A stretch of 64,000 nucleotides of DNA from Lachnospiraceae bacterium. GTDB lineage: Bacteria > Bacillota > Clostridia > Lachnospirales > Lachnospiraceae. The notes under the pieces were generated by a model, which worked only from the letters and a program-made list of their open reading frames with translations, searched no databases and was not told the DNA's origin. The translations under genes were made by a program, and so were the position numbers. The stretch is from assembly GCA_017525525.1 (NCBI GenBank), contig JAFXSQ010000036.1, positions 1 through 64,000 on the forward strand, read 5' to 3'. Below are positions 2,792 to 40,738 of the stretch, in pieces; positions within the stretch are counted from its first letter, which is position 1, and the number at the start of each line of letters is the position of its first letter.

Positions 2792-3364
2792 ATGCTTAAT
2801 TCTATTTTTTGCACCATGTTCGATATGACAAGAGGGGATAGTGTACTCTTTATCCCGTCCTGGCCACACGGCGATGAGGGCTTAAGGGATGATACCGTGT
2901 ATAAGTGCGTTATGAATTACGACAATTTGCTGGCAGAGGGCCTCGAGTATGATTTTGACATGCTCCTCGCAGGACTTAATTTTCTCGGAAAGTACTATAA
3001 GGATCACGAGTTCGGAATCAGACCCTCCGATGAGTATATCGAGGGCCAGGGGCTAATTTATGATGAAGAAGAATCGCTTCTCTGGATTTGGGAGACTTTC
3101 ATCAATGATTTCGTGAATGATGAGAATGACATTGAGGGAACATACAGGGCCGCAGAGAAGAAGGTCGGAGAGGGCGTGGCTGCGTACCAGGTTTTGATAC
3201 GCGCAAGAAGGCTTTGCAGGCTCATTTCACTCGGTGCTCCCGAGATAATCCTGAAGGCGGAGCGCGATATACTTACTCAGGCGTACTTCCTCCATGAGTT
3301 CGCCGAGTCGATGGAGGAGCTTCCACGTACTGAGGTGGATGAGAAGGATATTGTAGTTTTTTGA
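2792..3364 (+). CDS. Conserved-looking hypothetical protein (190 aa)
   Basis: I do not recognise this protein. It is acidic, lacks a signal peptide or membrane segment, and is mostly predicted-helical in the C-terminal half (residues about 115-175). It carries many Trp/Tyr/Phe residues in the N-terminal half. An AATGGAGGG ribosome site lies seven bases before the ATG. A TTGAAA with TTGTAT 17 bases later (2720-2748) could be its promoter. It is a single-gene unit: the upstream SprT-like gene is divergent and a hairpin terminator follows. Confidence 0.75.
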   Translation: MLNSIFCTMFDMTRGDSVLFIPSWPHGDEGLRDDTVYKCVMNYDNLLAEGLEYDFDMLLAGLNFLGKYYKDHEFGIRPSDEYIEGQGLIYDEEESLLWIWETFINDFVNDENDIEGTYRAAEKKVGEGVAAYQVLIRARRLCRLISLGAPEIILKAERDILTQAYFLHEFAESMEELPRTEVDEKDIVVF

Positions 3365-3376
3365 TCTTCGAACAAT

Positions 3377-3424
3377 ACCGTCTGTAGGCAGGGTGTTGTA
3401 TATTCGGTCTGCAGGCGGTTTTTG
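3377..3424 (+). terminator. Intrinsic terminator
   Basis: ACCGTCTGTAG pairs (with G-U pairs) with CTGCAGGCGGT, followed by a short T-run. It lies 13 bases after the stop of the 190-residue gene. Confidence 0.65.
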
Positions 3425-3446
3425 TGTATAAAAAAGGAGGTATTCT

Positions 3447-4250
3447 ATGTTTAACCGGTTAAGGTCATCGTGTAATTATATAAAGAAGCACCTCACAGAG
3501 GACTTTAGGGATAATACGTATCATTCGATAGGTGTAGCTACATCTGTTATCAGTCTCGTAACCACTATAATATCCGGATTAACCGGGATTATTTTGTATT
3601 ACGTCCAGGAAGCAGGTAACAAGGACAGCATGTGGACGAATATAAAGAATGACGGGCTTTTACTTGGATTTACAGAATCCTTTGAAGCCGGTTCGGTAAC
3701 TTACATGCGAGAAGGACTGCTGATGATCCTTGTCCTTGCTCTTGCATTTGTGCAAATAGTTATGTCTGTTCTGTCTAAAAAGAATGCTGAAGCAAAAGCG
3801 ATAAAAATAACAAAAGCGATGTTTAATTCGCTGTTGCTTGTATTGGCTCAATGGGCTGTCATGCCGCTTGCGATGATAATCATAGAGAATGTGCTCAGCA
3901 TACTTCAAGGGCTCCTACTGATTATTGTTATACATTTTGTGGTTTATATTATCACCGATGCCGATTATTCAACTTCCAGTTCAGGGGCAAGCTCACATTC
4001 GCATTCAGGTTTTAGTATTGGATCACACTCCGGTGGTTCGCATGATCCTGCTAAGGAACGGGAAATGAAGGAAAGGCAGAAGAGAGAGAAAAAGATAAAT
4101 CAGTTAGAGGATGAATTGAAAGAAAAGAAAATTGCCTTGGCAGCGTACAACAGAGGTGAAACCGCTAATTATTTGGGAGTTGATCCGAAATCGATGTCTA
4201 TCAAGATACAGGATATAGAAAGTAAAATTGAAAACTTGAAAAATAGTTAA
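3447..4250 (+). CDS. Membrane protein with Ser/His-rich linker and C-terminal coiled coil (267 aa)
   Basis: Three or four hydrophobic segments are visible: residues about 30-55, 90-112, 125-145 and 150-168. A low-complexity Ser/His/Gly stretch follows at about 178-200. The final 60 residues are highly charged, with heptad-like Leu/Ile spacing expected for a coiled coil. The His-rich linker might bind metal, but that is inference. An AAAAAGGAGG site lies six bases before the start. No family is recognised. It is followed by a palindromic element and then the three-gene cassette. Confidence 0.75.
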   Translation: MFNRLRSSCNYIKKHLTEDFRDNTYHSIGVATSVISLVTTIISGLTGIILYYVQEAGNKDSMWTNIKNDGLLLGFTESFEAGSVTYMREGLLMILVLALAFVQIVMSVLSKKNAEAKAIKITKAMFNSLLLVLAQWAVMPLAMIIIENVLSILQGLLLIIVIHFVVYIITDADYSTSSSGASSHSHSGFSIGSHSGGSHDPAKEREMKERQKREKKINQLEDELKEKKIALAAYNRGETANYLGVDPKSMSIKIQDIESKIENLKNS

Positions 4251-31543: not shown

Positions 31544-31573
31544 TTGTTTTGTGAATGTATTATATGGTAAAAT
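31544..31573 (+). promoter_or_regulatory. Promoter of the ChW/C39 gene
   Basis: TTGTTT (31544-31549) and TAAAAT (31568-31573) are 18 bases apart, with an extended TG at -14. The start point would lie about 50 bases before the GTG start. Confidence 0.6.
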
Positions 31574-31631
31574 ACTGATAGTTGCGTGGGTTTCGGACAT
31601 AATTTCATATTATACAACAGGAGGTATTAGG

Positions 31632-33254
31632 GTGAAGCTGAAGAAATTAAAGAGGTTTACGGCGCTGCTGGTTGCACTGGCTTTTATTGCGGGCGCGGTC
31701 TTCGGGTTTGATATTGATGCTCTGGCTGCGGGGGACGGGAATATAACAATAACGGTGCATCAGCAGACCTACGGTAATCTGACCGGCATCAAGAGCGGAG
31801 GGACTGCGGGCAAGGTCAGGACAGGCAAGAGGATAGAGGGCTTCTCGGTAAAGAAGGCGAGCGGCATGCCTGCGGGTTCGATAGTTTACCGGTCTTACGT
31901 GCAGAATAAGGGCTGGATGCCCTGGGTTCGTGACGGTCAGTACTCGGGAACCAAGGGGCAGGCTTTAAGGCTTGAGGCTTTTCAGGTAAAGCTTACAGGC
32001 AATCTTGCCAAGGCATATGATGTGTATTACAGGGCGTATGTTACGGGGCTTGGCTGGCTTGCGTGGACAAAAAACTCCGGCACGGTCGGAACCAAGCAGT
32101 GCGGACTTTCCATAGAAGGCTTTCAGTTGAGGCTTGTGAGAAAGGCTGCGAAGAAGCCGGTGGAGAACGGCAGAGCATTTATTCAGTCTTCTGACATGAA
32201 TGCGGTTGCCTACAATGCGATATCCATATCCGGCGATGAGCTTGCCGATGCAAGGAACGGCGCGGTGCTCGGAGACCTCGGGCATGAGAGAGGCTTTGAC
32301 AGGATAAGGCTCAGGCTTTCGCATAATGAAGGCAAGTTCGACGGAGGGATAAACTATCAGGTTTACCGTCGAGGTAAGGGATGGACCTGGATAATAGGCG
32401 AGAATACATATTCCGATCTCGGAGACGCGAGCGGAGATAATCACATAGAAGCAGTCAGGATATGGCTTACGGGTGAAGCGGACAAGTACTGTGACGTGTA
32501 CTACAGGGTGCACATAAAGAACGGTACCTGGCTCGGCTGGGCCAAGAATACCGAGATGACCGGCTGGACAAACGGCTGGAAATATATTGACGGGCTTCAG
32601 GTTCAGATCAAGCTTAAGAGCAAGCCGGCTCCGGAGAACGATGGCATGCAGGAGGTATTTATAGAGGACGGGCTTAAGCGTTCCAACAGCCTGGCGTCGG
32701 GTATGACTCACATGTACCAGAAACCGGAGCTTCGATCGGGATGTGAGACAGTTGCGCTGACCATGGCTCTCAATTACTGGGGCTTTGGGCTTTCCAAGAC
32801 TACCATAGCGGACAATTATCTTGTATACAGCAGCAGCTATGTGACGGGCTTCCAGGGCTCGCCTTACGGCTATCCGGGCGGAGGTATATATACCCCGGGA
32901 CTTCAGAGAACAGCCAATAACTTCCTTATAGAAAGAGGAAGCAACTTAAGAGCCTATGACTACACGGGCACAGACTTAGGTGACTTGTATCAGTTTGTAT
33001 CCGCAGGATATCCCGTGCTGGTATGGCACACCTGCGAATGGGAGTGGCCGAAGTATGACGGCTACACTACCTATTATAACGGCAGGGCGTACCAGTGGGT
33101 TACCAATGAGCACTGCCTCGTGCTGACCGGCTATGACCTGGACGCCAACACGGTGACCGTATATGACTCGATAGACGGTATCCTGACTCATGACAGGGAT
33201 TATTTCGAGGATGTGTACGACAATGTATTTAAGCAGGCCATGGTCATTATGTAG
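31632..33254 (+). CDS. Secreted ChW-repeat protein with a C39-like cysteine peptidase domain
   Basis: A signal peptide (residues 1-32, ending DALAA) is followed by two blocks of ChW repeats (about 60-200 and 225-335), with YRSYVQNKGWMPW and YYRVHIKNGTWLGW units. The C-terminal 190 residues match the peptidase_C39-like fold: Cys in RSGCETVALTM, His in TNEHCLVLTGYD and Asp in VTVYDSIDG. It is probably an exported wall-attached peptidase. The GTG at 31632 is chosen because AGGAGG lies seven bases upstream and the signal peptide starts there. It shares the ChW architecture of the 6.7-10.5 kb gene. Confidence 0.85.
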   Translation: MKLKKLKRFTALLVALAFIAGAVFGFDIDALAAGDGNITITVHQQTYGNLTGIKSGGTAGKVRTGKRIEGFSVKKASGMPAGSIVYRSYVQNKGWMPWVRDGQYSGTKGQALRLEAFQVKLTGNLAKAYDVYYRAYVTGLGWLAWTKNSGTVGTKQCGLSIEGFQLRLVRKAAKKPVENGRAFIQSSDMNAVAYNAISISGDELADARNGAVLGDLGHERGFDRIRLRLSHNEGKFDGGINYQVYRRGKGWTWIIGENTYSDLGDASGDNHIEAVRIWLTGEADKYCDVYYRVHIKNGTWLGWAKNTEMTGWTNGWKYIDGLQVQIKLKSKPAPENDGMQEVFIEDGLKRSNSLASGMTHMYQKPELRSGCETVALTMALNYWGFGLSKTTIADNYLVYSSSYVTGFQGSPYGYPGGGIYTPGLQRTANNFLIERGSNLRAYDYTGTDLGDLYQFVSAGYPVLVWHTCEWEWPKYDGYTTYYNGRAYQWVTNEHCLVLTGYDLDANTVTVYDSIDGILTHDRDYFEDVYDNVFKQAMVIM

Positions 33255-33293
33255 TATTGCGTATTATATAGTAAAACCTGTCACCGTGTCCCC

Positions 33294-33322
33294 TTGTGTT
33301 TAGGGCGTAAAAATAGTATAAT
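33294..33322 (+). promoter_or_regulatory. Promoter of the partner-switching operon
   Basis: TTGTGT (33294-33299) and a perfect TATAAT (33317-33322) are exactly 17 bases apart. The start point would lie about 45 bases before the first gene. Confidence 0.7.
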
Positions 33323-33372
33323 AAAGTGATTTTTTGCATCGATTTTTTTAGCAGTGTGAGGTGATAAATTTC

Positions 33373-34146
33373 ATGGATCAGGAAAAACGAATCAACGAAT
33401 TGACGGAAGAAGTAGAAAGCCTAAAACGCCAGCTGGCCATCACGGCATCCCTAAAATATCACCTGATGCCGGATGCCTACCCTTTTTTTTCGGATATTTC
33501 GGAAATCGATATATATGCCGATCAGATCAGCCTGGCTAAGGTGGGCGGAGATTTCTTCGATTTCTTTCGTATCGACCATGATCATATCGGTATTGTGGTG
33601 GCGGATATTTTTGACGGCGGGGATGCGGCAGCCCTCTATATGATCGCCTTTAAACTTTATCTGATGGCTGAGCTTTCCACGGGCTTTACGCCTGCGGAGC
33701 TCATCGAGGCGGTCAACAACCGACTGGCGGCGTCCAATGAAAGCAATTTATGCCTTTCGGCTTGGTTCGGTGTATACGAGCTTTCTACAGGAACCATCAC
33801 GGCGGTGAATGCGGGACATGAGTCTCCGATTCTTGCTACATCAAAGGGGATACATGATTGCGAAAATGAAGAGGTCTCGTATCTGATGGCGGTGATCGAG
33901 AATATAACCTACGAAAGCTATGAGATCCGCATGGAACCCGGGGATACGCTGTTGCTTTACACCGACGGCGCGATCAAAGCCGGATTCACAAGAGAAAAAA
34001 TGGGAGAGGTGCTCCTGCAAAATCCCGACCAAAACGCAGAGGAGCTTGTGGGCGCTTTGCAGGATGCCATGATGGAAACGATCGGAGACGACAGATTGAC
34101 GGACGACGCGACATTTTTGTGCTTTCGCAAGGAGGTGACAGCATGA
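33373..34146 (+). CDS. SpoIIE-type PP2C serine phosphatase, soluble
   Basis: A short coiled N-terminus (about 20 residues) leads to a complete PP2C/SpoIIE domain. Metal-binding Asp residues are in GGDFFDFF, VVADIF and LTDDATF. The usual SGKG loop after the second Asp is replaced by FDGGDA, so activity or specificity may differ from the membrane phosphatase later in the operon. Such enzymes dephosphorylate STAS-domain antagonists. The ATG at 33373 follows AGGTGAT by seven bases. The next gene overlaps its stop (ATGA). Confidence 0.85.
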   Translation: MDQEKRINELTEEVESLKRQLAITASLKYHLMPDAYPFFSDISEIDIYADQISLAKVGGDFFDFFRIDHDHIGIVVADIFDGGDAAALYMIAFKLYLMAELSTGFTPAELIEAVNNRLAASNESNLCLSAWFGVYELSTGTITAVNAGHESPILATSKGIHDCENEEVSYLMAVIENITYESYEIRMEPGDTLLLYTDGAIKAGFTREKMGEVLLQNPDQNAEELVGALQDAMMETIGDDRLTDDATFLCFRKEVTA

Positions 34147-35039
34147 GCTTTTTAAAATCGGTGTCTTCAAACGGTGAAATCTGTCTTTTTGATCATAACG
34201 GCAATTCAGTATGGCTTTCCGTAAACGACGAGGATGCAAGGCTGCTTGACTTTTCAATCCCGCCCGAGCATCGTGAAGAAGGTACGTATGCAGCGCTTAT
34301 CTCGGTGGCGGAATCGGAGGCCTTTATAAACGGAAAGACAAGGATGATCTGTGATTTCCCGGACAGTGAAAAAGGATTACGCACTGCGCTCTCCGATGCG
34401 GAATATGCCATGGAAGAGTCTGACAAAGTGATCTTCGTAAAAACAAGAGATCTGCTTTCCTCCGCCGGAGTGGAAAAGTCACTGCGCATGAAATTCCCGC
34501 AGGTCGAGGCGGTCAGTTTTTCGGATCTCGTCTCTTTTCAGCGGGAAGAGGTTGCCATGTTTCTGAACAAAGCCCGCTTCAGCGCGGATAAGGAAAGACT
34601 GAAAACAATCGACCCGGATATCAGCGCGGTTGCCTACGACGACAACTACGAAGCCCGTGCGATTTTGCTTGCTTCAAAAGAAGAGGACGAGATCCTCGTG
34701 GAGCTTTTGCTCGGTTTCTCGGCAAAGAAACCGCAGTATATCCTGGCGGTCTGTCAGAAATTTGCCGAGAGTTTGATTGAACAAAAACTGCAGGATCAAT
34801 ACCCGCGGATTTCCATGCTCACATTAAATGCAAATGTGGTTCCGCTACTGAAACGTTTGTTGGATAAGCAGTGCGTGCTGGAAACCGAAGCGCAGATTCT
34901 GCACGCCGAGAAAAAACTGACCGGAGGAGACTCCGCACCGGAGGAAACATCGGAGGCTGTGAAAGAAACGCATCCCTTGTCTCCGTATCAGAAAAATATA
35001 ACAGAAAAATACATCTGGGCATCAAAAAGGAAGGGGTAA
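34143..35039 (+). CDS. Protein with two degenerate GNAT-like domains (298 aa)
   Basis: The first half (residues 1-105) has IPPEHREEGTYAALISVAESEAFINGKTRMICD. This resembles the acetyl-CoA loop and helix of GNAT enzymes, though the R/Q-x-x-G-x-G/A signature is blurred. The second half (130-250) repeats a strand-helix pattern of similar kind. The last 50 residues are disordered. It may bind acyl-CoA or only keep the fold. The gene at 39685 has a similar tandem layout. Start and stop overlap or nearly touch the neighbours, so co-expression is certain on sequence grounds. Confidence 0.55.
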   Translation: MSFLKSVSSNGEICLFDHNGNSVWLSVNDEDARLLDFSIPPEHREEGTYAALISVAESEAFINGKTRMICDFPDSEKGLRTALSDAEYAMEESDKVIFVKTRDLLSSAGVEKSLRMKFPQVEAVSFSDLVSFQREEVAMFLNKARFSADKERLKTIDPDISAVAYDDNYEARAILLASKEEDEILVELLLGFSAKKPQYILAVCQKFAESLIEQKLQDQYPRISMLTLNANVVPLLKRLLDKQCVLETEAQILHAEKKLTGGDSAPEETSEAVKETHPLSPYQKNITEKYIWASKRKG

Positions 35040-35042
35040 CAC

Positions 35043-35351
35043 ATGAAGGATTTGGAAACAAAGATTATTGAAAACGGAACGGAAGCCGAAATCGTAATGA
35101 ACGGGAGATTGGACACTTCAACCGCAAAGGATGCCAGGACATTGTTCGAGGATGTTGCCGGTCGCTTTGACAAGGTGACGCTGAACATGGAAGGGCTTAC
35201 CTATTGCTCGAGTGCGGGAATCCGCTCCATTCGTCATATCTATAAGCTGATTAAGGAAAAGAAAGGAAAACTCGAAACAATTAATGTGTCTGATTCGGTG
35301 ATGCAGATTTTTGAGATTACGGGAGTTACCGCCATTCTTTCCGTTGGCTAG
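35043..35351 (+). CDS. STAS-domain anti-sigma factor antagonist
   Basis: At 102 residues with LNMEGLTYCSSAGIRSI it is a SpoIIAA/RsbV-type STAS protein. The phosphorylatable serine is Ser56 or Ser57; the Asp that usually precedes it is Cys55 here. The family cycles between a phosphorylated form (made by an RsbW-type kinase) and a free form (made by a PP2C phosphatase), and binds the kinase when free. All three partners are in this operon. The ATG follows GGAAGGGGTAAC. Confidence 0.9.
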   Translation: MKDLETKIIENGTEAEIVMNGRLDTSTAKDARTLFEDVAGRFDKVTLNMEGLTYCSSAGIRSIRHIYKLIKEKKGKLETINVSDSVMQIFEITGVTAILSVG

Positions 35352-35402
35352 GAAGCGATAGGTTACGAAGTAATCGAGTCATTTTTACGAGGAGGAATAG
35401 GC

Positions 35403-35810
35403 ATGAACAGTATGACTGTTACCGCAGAAGAAGACAAATTGGATGAAGTGATCGATTTTGTCATGGACGAGCTTTCCGAATATGAGTTGGATGAAGATAT
35501 TCAAATGCAACTTGAACTTGCCATAGAGGAGATATTCGTGAATATTGTAAGCTATGCATATAATCCGAATGTGGGAGATGCGGAGGTGCATGTAGAGGTT
35601 AAGGAGAATCCGCTTTCGGTAGAGATCGGTTTTCTTGATTCCGGCGTGCCTTTTAACCCCCTTGAACAGGATGCGGATACCTCGAAGGAAGCGCTTGAAG
35701 ACCATGAAGGCGGGTTGGGTATTCACATGGTAAAAAAGCTAATGGATTCCGTGGCCTATACCTATGAAGACGGAAAGAATATATTATGGATAAAGAAAAG
35801 AATGGAATAA
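35403..35810 (+). CDS. RsbW-like anti-sigma factor / serine kinase
   Basis: This is a GHKL ATPase of the HATPase_c_2 type, 135 residues. The N box is ELAIEEIFVNIVSYAYNP, G1 is FLDSGVPFNP and G2 is GGLGIHMVKKLMD. Proteins of this type phosphorylate STAS antagonists and hold a sigma factor or another output protein. No sigma factor gene lies in the operon, so the target is unknown. A GAGGAATAG site precedes the ATG; the next gene starts inside its 3' end. Confidence 0.9.
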   Translation: MNSMTVTAEEDKLDEVIDFVMDELSEYELDEDIQMQLELAIEEIFVNIVSYAYNPNVGDAEVHVEVKENPLSVEIGFLDSGVPFNPLEQDADTSKEALEDHEGGLGIHMVKKLMDSVAYTYEDGKNILWIKKRME

Positions 35811-37249
35811 GTGAAAATGTCTTATGGGAAAACGAAGTTACGGCAAACAGAGTTCTTACAATCATCCTGTTTCTTACGATCCTTTTAGTCGGAATTCTTT
35901 GGGCTATGCTCGAACTCGGCATATTCTATGTTGAGAAGACGGATTACAGGATCGTAAATGTTTTTAACGTTGCCCTATTGATCATCACAGGAATTATTTC
36001 CGTGCGCAACAAGTACGAAAAGCGATGGATCAAATATGCGTTGATATCTGTGCTGATCTATGTATATGCTACTAACTTTGCTATTTTTACTTACAATGCC
36101 GTACTGCTGATGGCAATTCCGACGGTCATTTCGTGCCGTTATTATTCAAAAAAGCTAACGATCATCGTTGCCTGTGTTACCGTGGGACTGTTCCTGATTG
36201 CTACGGTTTACGGTTCGGTAAACGGTGTATTGGATCTGAACTATCTGGAACTTTCAAAGGGGACAGTAATCGATTTCGGGGAGAATACCTGGTTAAGTGA
36301 CGCCTTGGAGGGAGTATCCTATGACAGGGAGCTTATGGTGAAAAACTCTCTGGGTTACGGTTACTTTATCCGATTCTTATGGTTTCTTATTATCATGGTA
36401 GTCTGTGCACGTATTTCCAATCAGGGAAGAAAGTTGATTCTGCGGCAGCAGGAGCTTTCGGATCATAAGGCACGCGTGAGCGCGGAACTCGATGTTGCAA
36501 CCAACATTCAAGCAAGCATGTTGCCGAACCGTTTTCCGGCGTTTCCCGACAGGAAAGAGTTGGATATCTATGCTACCATGGAGCCGGCAAGGGAGGTCGG
36601 TGGCGATTTTTATGATTTTTATTTGCTTGATCCGGACCATCTTGCACTGGTCGTAGCGGACGTATCAGGGAAGGGCGTTCCCGCAGCATTCTTTATGATG
36701 CAGGCAAAAACGATGATCAAAATCAGTATTCAAAATGACCCGGATCCGGCGGCCACATTGTACGCGGTCAATACTATGTTATGTGATAACAATGATGAAG
36801 ATATGTTTGTTACCGCATGGCTCGGTATTTTGGAGCTTTCTACGGGTAGGCTTACTTATTCGGATGCAGGGCATGAGAAACTGATCATACGCAAAAAAGG
36901 GGAATGGGAAATGCTTCCGAAAAAAGGAAAGAGTGCTCCCCTTGCCATGTTTGATGAGGAGGATATGGAAGATATGCCGGAGCTGGCATTTCTAAATAAC
37001 ACCGTATATTTAAACCCGCAGGATATTATACTGCAGTATACGGACGGCGTGACGGAGGCTCAGACTGTGGATGAGGAAATGTTTGGTGAGGAGAGGCTTT
37101 TGGAGGCAGTTTCGGGACTTGATACGGATGATCCGCGAGAAATTCTTTCCTGTGTACGTGCAAGGATGAACGAGTTTGTGAAAGATGCACCGCAATTTGA
37201 CGATATTACAATGCTTTCGGTTGTATATAAAGGCTTATTTTTGAATTAA
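35786..37249 (+). CDS. Membrane-anchored SpoIIE-type PP2C phosphatase
   Basis: Five or six membrane segments fill residues about 25-215 (TIILFLTILLVGILW, VALLIITGIISV, and one ending FLWFLIIMVVCA). A short coiled linker and a full PP2C domain (250-487) follow, with NIQASMLPN, VGGDFYDFY, VVADVSGKGVPAAFF and FDDITML, all canonical. It is expected to link an envelope signal to dephosphorylation of the STAS protein. It overlaps the kinase gene by 25 bases. The ligand is unknown. Confidence 0.9.
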   Translation: MDKEKNGISENVLWENEVTANRVLTIILFLTILLVGILWAMLELGIFYVEKTDYRIVNVFNVALLIITGIISVRNKYEKRWIKYALISVLIYVYATNFAIFTYNAVLLMAIPTVISCRYYSKKLTIIVACVTVGLFLIATVYGSVNGVLDLNYLELSKGTVIDFGENTWLSDALEGVSYDRELMVKNSLGYGYFIRFLWFLIIMVVCARISNQGRKLILRQQELSDHKARVSAELDVATNIQASMLPNRFPAFPDRKELDIYATMEPAREVGGDFYDFYLLDPDHLALVVADVSGKGVPAAFFMMQAKTMIKISIQNDPDPAATLYAVNTMLCDNNDEDMFVTAWLGILELSTGRLTYSDAGHEKLIIRKKGEWEMLPKKGKSAPLAMFDEEDMEDMPELAFLNNTVYLNPQDIILQYTDGVTEAQTVDEEMFGEERLLEAVSGLDTDDPREILSCVRARMNEFVKDAPQFDDITMLSVVYKGLFLN

Positions 37250-37261
37250 AGGAGGATGTGT

Positions 37262-39670
37262 ATGGGACAATTTGAAGAGTACCTTGAAAAGAAAAGACAA
37301 CAGCAGGAGTCGGTGGAAGGGACCATGGTGGATCTTGAACGCGATCTGGTCGAAAACCAAAAACTTCTGGGACTTGGAATGAATCCGGAAATAGAGGAGG
37401 ATTCGGCCAACTTTGTAGAGGAAAACCTTCGTATGCGGAATGCGAAGAGCACCTTTGCCGAGCGTACCGATTATTATTTTAAAAATTCGGAATATATGGA
37501 TGCGAAGACCGAACGATATCTCGGTTTGGCAGACGGAAAAGAACTGGATGCGTATGCCGAGAAGCATACAAATCGAAGTGCAAAAAAAAGGAAGGAAAAT
37601 GCCCAAAAGGCTGCAATAAGCTTTGACAAGGCAAGAAGACTGGAAGAAAAGGCAAGAAGTCGAGAAGAAAACCCGGACGCGGCACCGCAGAAGCCCCTTG
37701 AGGTTTATCGCGAAAGGGAGGAGATCATGCGCGCCCGCATGGAAGGTATGATCAGCGCCGCGAAGGTAAAAAGTACAAGCGCGTCAAATGAGGAGTACCG
37801 TATCGCCAAGGCAAAGCTTTCCTGCCTTACCCTTCTGCTGGATCAGGCGGGGAACCTCCGTGAAAGAGAATCCAAGGATTTTGACAAGATCGAAAGAAAT
37901 CTGAAAAAAGAAATCCTGGATGCGAGAAAGACCCTGAAAAAGTATGCATCCGATGCGGACGCCAAGTGGAAGGAATCTCTGGGGGCAAACGATACCGAAA
38001 AGCTTGACAAGATGGTAAAGGATTCCGGAAATCCCTATGCCAAAAGGGAGCACGCGGAATTATCCCTGTTGATGAAAAGCATGGCTGTCGAGTATATGAG
38101 ACCGGAGTATAAGGAGGCACAGAAATACGGAGAAGAGGTGTTTGGCAAAACCGTAGACTCCAGACGGGATCCTCTGGTTGCCGTCACTTATACGATCCGA
38201 AGGGACAAGAACGGGAAGCCCATCAACCGCGAGGAATTAAAGAAGGAGCAATGGAACAACAATTGGCTGGAGGCTTGTAAGAATCCGAAGATGAAGTATG
38301 AGCGGCAGCGCATGATCATAGAGGCCTATCAAAGAATGACGCGCGTTGAGCTTCCCACACCGCAGGATCTGAAAAAACATGGCGCCCTCTATTATTTGAA
38401 AAAAAATCCGGTAGAGATTTGGGACCTTTACAAGATGACCCTGCGTATCGATAACCTGGCAGACTATGAGCCCATTTGCAGGGAGTACTGCTTAAATGAC
38501 AAGCAGTTTAAATCACGCATGGAAACCGTTATGTATTTTACGCAAGTTTTAGACTTCGAGCTGAAGGAAAACTACAATCTGTATGAAAGCAAAAATTTTG
38601 AAATCTATCCGGGAGATCAGCATGAGGGGGAAACGGAAGAGGAAAAAGCGGAAGTCATAAGACAAAAACGAGATAATATGGAGCGTTCTTTAAAGGCCTA
38701 TGAAGATACCTATGACAGGATCAAGGTGGCGGATGATTTAAGGGCCGCGGAAGATGAGGAATACAGATACAATAAAACACTTAGCTATGTAGAAATAAAG
38801 GAAAAAGCGGACAGTCTCGGAAATAGACAGTTTAACAAGGAGTCCTATGAGAAATACAAGCAAATTAAGGAATCCAACAAAGCGCTGGAAAACCCGCAGT
38901 ACAGAGCGCTGTATGCGCCGATCCATAAAAAGCTGGGATCGGATCGGGATATTTCCCGTGTGTGCGGCGCCATGCTTCGCTCGGTAAAATTTGATCAAAA
39001 CTGGATGCCTGTTTCCGAGGAAGATATGAAGGCACATGAGTGGAACATGAAGTATTTGAACAATCTTTCCACCTACACGCTGGGATTTGAGTTAGATGCG
39101 ATGGACCTGCGTGAAAAAAAAGAGCTTGAAGAAGAAGGAAGGACGACGGCGGAAAACAATAAGATCATACGAAAACTGGAAGAAAAAAAGGCAAAAAGTG
39201 AAGCAATCCTAAAAGAGATGGTAATGGAGGAGTTTACGAGGTCCTTCTCCGGCGCAGGGTCCTATCCGCTGCCTACACCGGAGCAGCTGAAAAAAGAACT
39301 GTATGAACCGTTAAAAAACGGTCAGCCGCTTGACGCACCGTGCATGGAAAACGTCATGAAGAATATTTCGAAATATTCGACCATGGCACAAAAGTCACTT
39401 TGTATGGAGGGAACGACCAAGAATCTGCCCTTTGTACAGGAGTTTGTAGACAGCCACCCGGAATTCCTTGCACTTCAAAAGGCACAGAGTACTTTTTCGA
39501 TGATCGTGGATTCCTATTACAACAGTAAATACCATGTATCACCGAATACCGGCTCGAATGTAAAGGTGGATTTAGCTATGCCGCTTGTTCCGGAAACACT
39601 AGAGTTTTTTATCACACAGTTTGAAGAAGCATATAACAAATTCCGTGAATTGACAGGCAGCGGACAGTAG
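37262..39670 (+). CDS. Large coiled-coil protein of unknown function (802 aa)
   Basis: I recognise no family. The protein has no signal peptide or membrane segment and is nearly all charged helix: long Lys/Glu/Arg-rich stretches at about 90-160, 195-260, 445-520 and 610-660. A few denser parts (270-420 and 700-800) contain Trp/Tyr/Pro and may be folded. The ATG at 37262 is used because AAAGGAGG is six bases upstream; the one at 37256 touches the site. It sits between a phosphatase and a GNAT-like gene, so it may be the output or scaffold of the partner switch. The Lys codon bias to AAA stands out. Confidence 0.75.
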   Translation: MGQFEEYLEKKRQQQESVEGTMVDLERDLVENQKLLGLGMNPEIEEDSANFVEENLRMRNAKSTFAERTDYYFKNSEYMDAKTERYLGLADGKELDAYAEKHTNRSAKKRKENAQKAAISFDKARRLEEKARSREENPDAAPQKPLEVYREREEIMRARMEGMISAAKVKSTSASNEEYRIAKAKLSCLTLLLDQAGNLRERESKDFDKIERNLKKEILDARKTLKKYASDADAKWKESLGANDTEKLDKMVKDSGNPYAKREHAELSLLMKSMAVEYMRPEYKEAQKYGEEVFGKTVDSRRDPLVAVTYTIRRDKNGKPINREELKKEQWNNNWLEACKNPKMKYERQRMIIEAYQRMTRVELPTPQDLKKHGALYYLKKNPVEIWDLYKMTLRIDNLADYEPICREYCLNDKQFKSRMETVMYFTQVLDFELKENYNLYESKNFEIYPGDQHEGETEEEKAEVIRQKRDNMERSLKAYEDTYDRIKVADDLRAAEDEEYRYNKTLSYVEIKEKADSLGNRQFNKESYEKYKQIKESNKALENPQYRALYAPIHKKLGSDRDISRVCGAMLRSVKFDQNWMPVSEEDMKAHEWNMKYLNNLSTYTLGFELDAMDLREKKELEEEGRTTAENNKIIRKLEEKKAKSEAILKEMVMEEFTRSFSGAGSYPLPTPEQLKKELYEPLKNGQPLDAPCMENVMKNISKYSTMAQKSLCMEGTTKNLPFVQEFVDSHPEFLALQKAQSTFSMIVDSYYNSKYHVSPNTGSNVKVDLAMPLVPETLEFFITQFEEAYNKFRELTGSGQ

Positions 39671-39684
39671 GAGGATAAGATCGA

Positions 39685-40497
39685 ATGAATTATATAAGAA
39701 TTGATGCGACAAATTTAGACGGTTTCACCTCGGTCCTTCCGGCAAGCTATTTTGACGGAGCGGGTATCTGCCTGGGTGCTTACGAGGAAGACGGAAGCGT
39801 GTGTGGCGCCATTGCTCTGTCTTATGACGGCGTGCAATATGATATCGACTGGCTGTATGTGGTCGGAGAAAAGCGTCTTGCCGGCGTGGGAACCGGACTT
39901 ATAAGGGAGGTAAAGCACATTGTTGCGGAACTGGGCGTTGCACCGATTCGTGCGCAATTTGATATCGAAGAGGATACCGGACTGTACGCCTTCTTTCTGT
40001 CCATGGATGATCCGGATTTCACGGTAGATGTGGCGTATTCCCATAATCGTTATTTTTCAAATACAGAGGATTTTATAGAGAGCTTTGGCGGAGGAGATTT
40101 CTTGAAGCTTCCCCGGCCGCGCCTGTTCTGGAGCCTGAAGGAGGAGCTGAAAGATCAGGCACTGAGTCTGGCGATGGAGCATCTGGAGATCACGGACGCC
40201 GAACGGTTTGAAAGCTCCTGCGAGAAGACCCTTTGTCTTGCGGTAAGTGACGGGGAGATCGTAAACAGCTTTATGATGGTGCAGCACACACCCTCCGGAG
40301 ATCTGTCCCTTTCGTACCTTTACGCAAAGGATCAAAAGGCGCTGGTAGGCATGCTGAAGGCAGCGGCCATCGAGGCGCAGGAAAACTTTCACGACAAAAA
40401 CATCTTCTTTGATGCCGTCACCGATGAAGCGGAGGCTTTGGCAGATAAGATTTTGCCCGGTGCAATAAGGCATGCGGTCTATGAGGTCGAATTATAG
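39685..40497 (+). CDS. Tandem GNAT-like acetyltransferase protein (270 aa)
   Basis: The N-terminal half has the GNAT order: a strand with GAICLGAYEEDG-like start, IDWLYVVGEKRLAGVGTGLIREVKHIVAELG (acetyl-CoA loop VAGVGTG-like at about residues 65-75), then a late strand. The C-terminal half (140-270) repeats the fold without a clear loop. At least the first domain could bind acetyl-CoA. The gene ends the partner-switching operon and resembles the 34143 gene in layout. A GGAGGATAAG site precedes the ATG. Confidence 0.7.
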   Translation: MNYIRIDATNLDGFTSVLPASYFDGAGICLGAYEEDGSVCGAIALSYDGVQYDIDWLYVVGEKRLAGVGTGLIREVKHIVAELGVAPIRAQFDIEEDTGLYAFFLSMDDPDFTVDVAYSHNRYFSNTEDFIESFGGGDFLKLPRPRLFWSLKEELKDQALSLAMEHLEITDAERFESSCEKTLCLAVSDGEIVNSFMMVQHTPSGDLSLSYLYAKDQKALVGMLKAAAIEAQENFHDKNIFFDAVTDEAEALADKILPGAIRHAVYEVEL

Positions 40498-40552: not shown

Positions 40553-40738
40553 ATGGAAAGACAAAGAAGATGATACATCCTTCCAATCCTGTTTTTGATC
40601 GCCGGTTTCTTCCTGCTTGGAGGATCATTGACCGTGCGGGCGGAAGACACAACGGAAACATACGTTTGGCAAGAACGGGTATGTAAAATAACAGACACGG
40701 GGACGGGGACACCGTGTCCCCGTCTATGTCTTTTTTAA
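40553..40738 (+). pseudogene. Decayed secreted-protein gene fragment
   Basis: The frame reads MERQRR, a TGA stop, then YILPILFLIAGFFLLGG...VRAEDTT, a clear signal peptide followed by the start of a mature protein, and ends at a TAA after a hairpin. No intact product can be made. It looks like the 5' end of a lost secreted-protein gene, the rest replaced by terminator DNA. Confidence 0.55.
40703..40736 (+). terminator. Intrinsic terminator
   Basis: ACGGGGACA and TGTCCCCGT form a 9-bp stem around CCG, followed after seven bases by a run of six T. It ends the transcript ahead of the rpmG promoter. Confidence 0.75.

What the first reader, a model, noticed from the sequence alone, without database searches (positions are those of the whole stretch)
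33294..40497. Seven-gene partner-switching operon with an 802-residue unknown protein and two tandem GNAT-like proteins
A soluble PP2C phosphatase, an STAS antagonist, an RsbW-like kinase and a membrane PP2C phosphatase are the full set of a partner switch, yet no sigma factor is encoded. In their place are a large coiled-coil protein and two tandem GNAT-fold proteins, one near each end. Overlaps and short gaps show one transcript from a good promoter (33294-33322). The unknown protein or the acetyltransferases may be the output that the kinase holds. The block's Lys codons are visibly richer in AAA than those of lon or the pot genes, hinting at transfer.
Basis: partly seen in the sequence, partly recalled or inferred. 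Interest (0 to 1): 0.85.

Follow-up and report, generated by a model that had tools for sequence, protein, structure and literature searches.

The report
Injection-machine cargo operon with GNAT partner
This seven-gene operon, from a gut bacterium of the Lachnospiraceae, looks like one of about ten scattered gene sets that each pair a very large, possibly injected protein with a small acetyltransferase-like partner, tied to a phage-tail-like injection machine encoded elsewhere in the same genome.

Summary
The seven genes are there as described. The 802-aa protein (P0006) matches no Pfam or NCBIfam family, but it is not a lone unknown. The genome encodes a contractile injection system (CIS) and about ten loci that hold a large protein and a GNAT-like protein. 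The P0007 (GNAT) family aligns over its full length with GNAT-like proteins at the head of the CIS locus. A STAS protein like P0003 sits in the CIS locus, and a relative has homologues of P0002, P0004 and P0005 beside its CIS locus. In 397 family genomes, 44 with this sheath, P0007-type hits fall in sheath-positive genomes in 11 of 13, CIS-type GNAT-like hits in 9 of 9, P0006-profile hits in 5 of 6 (the four solid ones all). GNAT-linked large proteins include two Ntox11 toxin-domain proteins and calpain-like proteases; one P0006-type protein has a PI3/PI4-kinase match. Best reading: P0006 is CIS cargo, P0007 its adaptor or modifier, and the partner switch couples them to the CIS.

The parts
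33294..33322 (+). promoter-like site TTGTGT-N17-TATAAT (perfect -10, weak -35)
   Evidence: sequence
33373..34146 (+). P0001, soluble PP2C/SpoIIE-type phosphatase, 257 aa
   Evidence: Pfam SpoIIE 1.4e-32; homologues beside P0006 relatives in G012 and G018
34143..35039 (+). P0002, 298 aa, probably a divergent GNAT-fold protein
   Evidence: no Pfam or NCBIfam match; homologues in G012, G018 and, 228 aa, beside the CIS locus of G366 (6e-25); bridge to GNAT by a 277-aa protein
35043..35351 (+). P0003, STAS antagonist, 102 aa
   Evidence: Pfam STAS 2.7e-11; related STAS genes follow the last baseplate gene in CIS loci
35403..35810 (+). P0004, RsbW-like HATPase kinase, 135 aa
   Evidence: Pfam HATPase_c_2 2.5e-23; four further matches in the genome, one (50% identity) in the CIS locus as part of a PP2C-HATPase fusion
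35786..37249 (+). P0005, membrane PP2C phosphatase, 487 aa
   Evidence: Pfam SpoIIE 7e-45; 481-aa homologue beside the CIS locus of G366 (2e-125)
37262..39670 (+). P0006, 802-aa large protein, candidate CIS cargo; N-terminal module plus two copies of a repeat of about 50 residues
   Evidence: family and repeats; no named family, no solved relative
39685..40497 (+). P0007, 270-aa GNAT-fold protein with acetyl-CoA-loop motif, candidate adaptor or modifier of P0006
   Evidence: Pfam GNAT 5e-4; loop RLAGVG; family matches CIS-locus GNAT-like proteins at 98.5% probability
40701..40725 (+). terminator-like stem-loop after the operon

Best explanation
The operon is a detached cargo module of a contractile injection system (CIS) encoded elsewhere in the same genome. 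P0006 is a large cargo (effector) protein that enters the machine through its polar, probably unfolded N-terminus with the help of the CIS AAA+ ATPase. P0007 (and perhaps P0002) is a GNAT-fold partner that binds it as adaptor or chaperone, or modifies it. The PP2C-STAS-RsbW set is a partner switch that ties the module to the signal that controls the CIS, whose loci carry the same kinds of parts. Supported by sequence: the CIS locus, the homology between module and CIS-locus proteins, the pairing, and the co-occurrence. Inferred: that P0006 is injected, that the GNAT is an adaptor, and what the switch controls.
For: CIS in the own genome: sheath, tube, CIS_tube, spike, gp25, Pvc16_N, DUF4280, AAA+ ATPase on contig C50 beside a 2181-aa protein, a second AAA+ protein and a GNAT-like protein. 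The CIS locus head encodes a 1006-aa protein, a GNAT and two GNAT-like proteins whose family recurs beside P0006 relatives (E 1e-29 to 1e-107) and matches the P0007 family over 257 columns. A P0006-superfamily protein directly follows a CIS-type AAA+ gene in G018. Pairing: 14 of 19 P0006-superfamily loci have an adjacent GNAT-like protein by a non-self match. Co-occurrence with the sheath in 397 genomes: P0007-type 11 of 13, CIS-type GNAT-like 9 of 9, P0006-profile 5 of 6. Toxin or enzyme domains in GNAT-linked large proteins: Ntox11 in C62 and in the CIS locus of G424, calpain, PI3/PI4 kinase in a P0006-type protein, ABC1 kinase beside the C9 paralogue. Gln-rich polar N-termini in 28 hand-picked large proteins against 284 controls (Q 0.092 vs 0.023 in the first 40 residues, p 7e-12). 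Partner-switch parts in CIS loci.
Against: P0006 itself has no recognised catalytic or toxin domain. Many sheath-positive genomes (39 of 44) give no P0006-profile hit, and 31 of 44 give neither P0007-type nor CIS-type GNAT-like hits at E <= 1e-8, so this is one cargo lineage, not a core part. Two of 13 P0007-type genomes (G139, G083) show neither the sheath nor the CIS baseplate protein. Two of the six P0006-profile hits are weak: G343 lies in a SecA-like gene, and G027 (E 1.6e-4) lies in a large protein that the tighter P0006 model does not find. The N-terminal composition test uses related, hand-picked proteins. Several large proteins (up to 2818 aa) are far bigger than usual CIS cargo (recalled). 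No physical, structural or expression evidence.
Confidence: 0.58

Rival explanations
1. CIS module as above, but the GNAT is an active enzyme that acetylates or acylates its paired large protein to activate or silence it, in the manner of toxin-activating acyltransferases (HlyC type, recalled).
For: P0007 and 17 others of 37 GNAT-like proteins show a loose acetyl-CoA-loop pattern in the expected region; P0007 passes the Pfam GNAT cut-off.
Against: The pattern is missing in 19 of 37, among them all eight members of the CIS-type GNAT-like family that I listed, the three P0002-type proteins and the close P0007 relatives of L013 and L016.
Confidence: 0.2
2. P0006 and its relatives are structural or accessory parts of the CIS (for example scaffold, tape-measure or anchoring proteins) and are not injected.
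For: Helix-rich repeat architecture without a known enzyme domain in P0006; large proteins stand next to AAA+ and baseplate genes.
Against: Several copies per genome at scattered places, and toxin or enzyme domains in GNAT-linked large proteins. Most sheath-positive genomes have no P0006.
Confidence: 0.12
3. One reading: the RsbW-like kinase directly holds P0006 or a GNAT protein as the output of an ordinary partner switch that has nothing to do with the CIS.
For: One operon without a sigma factor; six of seven genes recur together in G012.
Against: Large-plus-GNAT loci mostly occur without an adjacent kinase gene; co-occurrence with the CIS sheath; partner-switch parts within CIS loci.
Confidence: 0.06
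4. Toxin-immunity pairs: the GNAT-like protein protects the producer from its large toxic neighbour.
For: One small gene lies tightly next to a large one in most P0006-type loci.
Against: The same fold accompanies unrelated large proteins with different enzyme domains, while immunity proteins are as a rule specific to the toxin domain (recalled).
Confidence: 0.04

Closest known systems
Extracellular contractile injection systems (Afp, PVC type; eCIS)
   Same: The own-genome locus encodes sheath, tube, CIS_tube, Pvc16_N, spike, gp25, DUF4280 and AAA+ proteins. PVC cargo is loaded through disordered N-terminal signals by an AAA+ ATPase (PMC11495950, abstract and passages). Toxins near eCIS loci, also in Firmicutes, are in print (PMC8213781, two passages).
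   Different: Giant candidate cargo with GNAT-like neighbours, many sets far from the CIS locus, and partner-switch genes; none of the words acetyltransferase, SpoIIE or Lachnospir occur in PMC8213781, nor GNAT, acetyltransferase or Lachnospir in PMC11297309.
Effector adaptors and chaperones (T6SS adaptors; DUF4157 near eCIS toxins as proposed in PMC11297309, passage)
   Same: A small protein encoded next to a large effector-like protein.
   Different: GNAT fold, often without the cofactor loop; no DUF4157 match was reported for the large proteins given to Pfam.
RsbU-RsbV-RsbW / SpoIIE-SpoIIAA-SpoIIAB partner switches
   Same: PP2C, STAS and HATPase kinase in one operon.
   Different: No sigma factor in the operon; the proteins fall far below the NCBIfam equivalog cut-offs for RsbW, SpoIIAB, SpoIIAA and SpoIIE.
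GNAT acetyltransferases
   Same: P0007 matches Pfam GNAT and has the loop motif.
   Different: About 270 aa with a long C-terminal half and constant pairing with large proteins; many relatives lack the loop.

Membership tests
eCIS (own-genome locus on C30/C50) | contractile sheath and gp19-type tube | tested here: met
   PF04984 2.3e-18, PF17482 1.4e-15, PF06841 4.5e-32
eCIS (own-genome locus on C30/C50) | CIS_tube/LysM, Pvc16, spike, gp25 and PAAR-type proteins | tested here: met
   PF19266 4.9e-14, PF14065 7.8e-29, PF04717 3.9e-20, PF04965 7.9e-16, PF14107 1.5e-33
eCIS (own-genome locus on C30/C50) | AAA+ ATPase of the locus | tested here: met
   87% match to the G018 AAA+ protein, on contig C50. 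The step from C30 to C50 is inferred from gene order in G018; in G027, G140, G416, G424 and G366 the AAA+ gene lies on the same contig as the sheath
eCIS (own-genome locus on C30/C50) | no phage head genes; particle released or functional | not tested
   no head-gene search was made; needs the bench
eCIS cargo (P0006) | encoded in or linked to a CIS locus | tested here: inconclusive
   P0006 lies on another contig than the CIS; a superfamily member follows the CIS-type AAA+ gene in G018; co-occurrence
eCIS cargo (P0006) | disordered N-terminal loading signal | tested here: inconclusive
   composition only; structure prediction switched off
eCIS cargo (P0006) | toxin or enzyme domain | tested here: not met
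   none in P0006; present in one longer relative and in other GNAT-linked large proteins. P0006 is therefore called candidate cargo, not a member
GNAT family (P0007) | profile match and acetyl-CoA loop | tested here: met
   PF00583 5e-4 at the cut-off; RLAGVG
GNAT family (P0002) | profile match and acetyl-CoA loop | tested here: not met
   no Pfam match, no loop; fold kinship only by a bridge
RsbW-type partner switch | PP2C, STAS antagonist and HATPase kinase together | tested here: met
RsbW-type partner switch | cognate sigma factor in the operon | tested here: not met
   none of the seven proteins; elsewhere in the genome not searched

The most novel reading that the evidence does not exclude
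A CIS of gut Lachnospiraceae draws on a genome-wide arsenal of giant cargo proteins, each delivered with its own GNAT-fold adaptor (a new class of effector chaperone made from an acetyltransferase, often without the cofactor loop), and partner-switch modules like this one arm part of the arsenal on signal.
Probability: 0.4. Interest if true: 0.85.

Novelty: new variant of a known kind. Interest (0 to 1): 0.74.

Why it matters
If true, a hidden set of injected proteins in gut and rumen bacteria becomes recognisable through one handle, the GNAT-like neighbour. It would add a new adaptor fold to contractile injection systems, link their control to partner switching, and make it possible to ask which cells (rumen protozoa, fungi, other bacteria or the animal host) are the targets.

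Tried and rejected
P0006 and P0002 against Pfam and NCBIfam, and P0006 against solved structures, gave nothing usable. The PI3/PI4-kinase match of the 1785-aa relative rests on one Pfam match of 27.8 bits over a cut-off of 27.1 and a DRHTGN loop (its likeness to known kinases is recalled); phmmer found no kinase among solved structures. The G343 hit of the P0006 profile lies in a SecA-like gene (name read from the sequence), and the G027 hit is not confirmed by the tighter model; both stay in the counts. No common promoter was seen by eye in ten upstream stretches besides the window's. P0002 does not match the P0007 family directly. An island of foreign DNA is left open: codon use differs, GC does not. 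The 287-aa neighbour of a 1075-aa protein in G140 has no Pfam match and only a weak match to one GNAT-like protein (1.5e-5), and the 288-aa and 303-aa neighbours in G416 and G366 have none; I do not count these. Papers: searches found none; one search listed the eCIS papers; (CIS with rumen, GNAT, partner-switching) found 3, 1 and 1 papers, judged unrelated from titles and abstract starts; none of the 10 rows shown (of 7,049) holds the CIS term, so it tells nothing; none of the 12 rows shown (of 94) joins CIS and partner-switch terms. Of PMC8213781, PMC11297309, PMC12210884 and PMC11495950 I saw only found passages (and, of the last, parts of the abstract).
Full report
Observation. The seven genes exist at the stated place, strand and order, with overlaps or short gaps. 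Pfam names two PP2C phosphatases, one STAS protein, one HATPase kinase-like protein and one GNAT protein; the 298-aa and the 802-aa proteins match nothing over a cut-off in Pfam and nothing in NCBIfam. The proposed promoter has a perfect -10 and a poor -35. The Lys codon bias is real for the block as a whole (85 of 173 AAA versus 254 of 1151) but not for each gene, and GC is the same as in the window.

The 802-aa protein is a family. The own genome holds a paralogue of almost full length (43% identity, contig C9), a copy cut by a contig end (C1) and a short remnant (C57). Hits are rare: 3 of 61 genomes in a relatives sample; 6 of 397 in a family sample, of which G343 lies in a SecA-like gene and G027 is weak and not confirmed by a tighter model, leaving G000, G366, G410 and G424; and 10 loci from four metagenome-assembled Lachnospiraceae or Clostridiales genomes in the named collection, one of them from roe deer rumen by its title. 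P0006 has an N-terminal module and two copies of a repeat of about 50 residues, 262 residues apart. Longer members (1636 to 1924 aa) have one to three copies plus long extensions; that of 1785 aa has a PI3/PI4-kinase Pfam match near its end.

It comes with a GNAT. I examined the window and 18 fetched loci with a P0006-superfamily hit, duplicates left out. In 14 of these 19 the neighbouring protein matches a GNAT-like protein of another locus. A 15th (L045, G410) is known, and a 16th (L042) shows only the loop motif. The other three are L041 (neighbours are a 942-aa calpain-like and a 732-aa protein; two GNAT-like proteins lie beyond the 942-aa one), the C57 remnant (L015), and L020, which follows a CIS-type AAA+ gene and is cut by the contig end.

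The genome carries a contractile injection system. Contig C30 encodes sheath, tube, CIS_tube, spike, gp25, Pvc16_N and DUF4280 proteins. The AAA+ ATPase lies on contig C50 with a 2181-aa protein, a second AAA+ protein and a 283-aa GNAT-like protein; that C50 continues C30 is inferred from gene order in relatives. The head of the C30 locus encodes a 179-aa protein, a 1006-aa large protein, a 272-aa GNAT (Pfam 2.3e-10), two GNAT-like proteins of 286 and 288 aa, and membrane proteins. The 286/288-aa family recurs beside P0006 relatives in L013, L016 and L040, and its alignment matches that of the P0007 family over 257 columns at 98.5% probability. A 714-aa PP2C-HATPase protein related to P0004 and P0005 lies in the same locus, and a STAS protein like P0003 follows the last baseplate gene (2.5e-15).

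CIS loci of relatives show the same parts. I fetched stretches round the sheath of 12 further genomes and printed 11 (G209 was analysed but not printed). A STAS gene follows the last baseplate gene in all seven printed stretches that reach that far (G014, G016, G027, G140, G366, G416, G424); G012, G023, G052 and G234 do not reach it. In G366 homologues of P0005 (481 aa, 2e-125) and P0002 (228 aa, 6e-25) lie 32-37 kb from the sheath, past the locus head, and a HATPase-bearing protein (P0004, 4e-27) stands next to the STAS gene. Large proteins with GNAT-like neighbours lie in the loci of G012, G027, G366, G416 and G424. In G140 the candidate neighbour is only weakly GNAT-like (1.5e-5). None was seen in the stretches of G014, G016, G023, G052 and G234, several of which are short. 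In G424 a 664-aa Ntox11 protein (1.1e-46) lies two genes from the AAA+ gene, after a PP2C gene and before a GNAT-like gene.

Co-occurrence. In the 397-genome sample the own sheath finds 44 genomes (E <= 1e-20). P0006-profile hits are in sheath-positive genomes in 5 of 6, P0007-profile hits in 11 of 13, CIS-type GNAT-like hits in 9 of 9 (hypergeometric p 7e-5, 6e-10 and 1e-9; without the own genome 4 of 5, 10 of 12 and 8 of 8). The genomes are related, so the p values overstate independence. The converse does not hold: 31 of the 44 sheath-positive genomes have neither P0007-type nor CIS-type hits. In the relatives sample the sheath is in 8 of 61; G018 has P0006 relatives without a sheath hit, but it has the CIS baseplate protein (68% identity) and an AAA+ gene (L020). 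G139 and G083 have P0007-type hits with neither sheath nor baseplate protein.

The arsenal in the own genome. Besides the window and the CIS locus: C9 (1336-aa ABC1-kinase protein, 806-aa paralogue, GNAT, GNAT-like); C1 (GNAT and P0006-type protein); C62 at 65.7-71.5 kb (517-aa Ntox11 protein, 605-aa GNAT, 803-aa protein), 1.7 kb past the window end; C25 (2818 aa and GNAT); C26 (1164 aa, a 166-aa protein, GNAT-like); C37 (1876 aa or more and a 500-aa GNAT-like protein). Looser: C44 (1028-aa calpain protein, 388-aa GNAT-like protein three genes away on the same strand) and C33 (1107 aa or more and a GNAT-like protein, six genes apart). None of the fetched stretches round C25, C26, C33, C37, C44 or C62 at 65.7 kb shows an RsbW-like or STAS match in the rows printed.

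Does the block recur? In G012 (named RUG655: equal contig lengths) homologues of P0001, P0003, P0004, P0006 and P0007 stand in the same order; P0002 lies upstream, with a 283-aa and a 990-aa gene between; P0005 is missing from the block. In G018 homologues of P0006 (cut by the contig end), P0007 (distant), P0001 and P0002 lie together.

Mechanism. PVC cargo is loaded through 50-70-residue disordered N-terminal signals with help of the AAA+ ATPase Pvc15 (PMC11495950, abstract and passages). The large proteins here have polar, Gln-rich starts (28 hand-picked, partly related proteins against 284 controls), and AAA+ genes stand beside large proteins in CIS loci. I therefore propose cargo for P0006. 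The GNAT-like partner shows the loop pattern in P0007 and 17 others of 37, but in none of the eight listed members of the CIS-type family, nor in P0002-type proteins, nor in the P0007 relatives of L013 and L016. So a binding role is the common denominator and catalysis an option. The partner switch probably sets expression or readiness; its sigma factor, if any, was not sought. Calpain-like and PI3/PI4-kinase-like domains hint at eukaryotic targets, which is inference only.

Novelty. Contractile injection systems and toxins near them are known, also in Firmicutes (PMC8213781, passages). GNAT-fold partners of giant candidate cargo, their scattered modules and their partner switch did not turn up in the papers searched, which is a limited open-access library. 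I rate it a new variant of a known kind.

Noticed in passing
G000:C62:65733-71519 (L121:3734-9520), 1.7 kb past the window end: A 517-aa protein with an Ntox11 domain (5.5e-42), a 605-aa GNAT protein and an 803-aa large protein in a row.
   Followed up: partly
L041:6263-11620 (G366): A 1785-aa protein with the P0006 N-terminal module and a C-terminal PI3/PI4-kinase Pfam match with a DRHTGN loop; a calpain-like 942-aa protein lies beside it.
   Followed up: partly
L048:209-748, L123:8882-9382, L016:12-719, L063:1284-1931 and 2805-3497: Small proteins (166-235 aa) without Pfam match (three of the five tested) beside large proteins; C30 and C26 copies match each other (2e-11). Possible chaperones.
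   Followed up: no
L015:13501-13929 (G000:C57): A remnant of a P0006-type gene with most of the middle missing.
   Followed up: no
L133:3432-9977 (G000:C50): A 2181-aa protein with a long polar start between the two AAA+ genes of the CIS locus.
   Followed up: no
L048:1-190 (G000:C30): A repeated stretch of roughly 100 bases stands upstream of the CIS locus head, at the contig start.
   Followed up: no
window 33283-33296 and 40701-40725: The word CACCGTGTCCCC occurs just upstream of the operon promoter and inside the terminator-like stem after the operon.
   Followed up: no
window 31551-33254: A 567-aa secreted-looking protein upstream of the operon whose C-terminal part resembles a 263-aa protein on C57 (L015:945-1736), judged by eye.
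   Followed up: no
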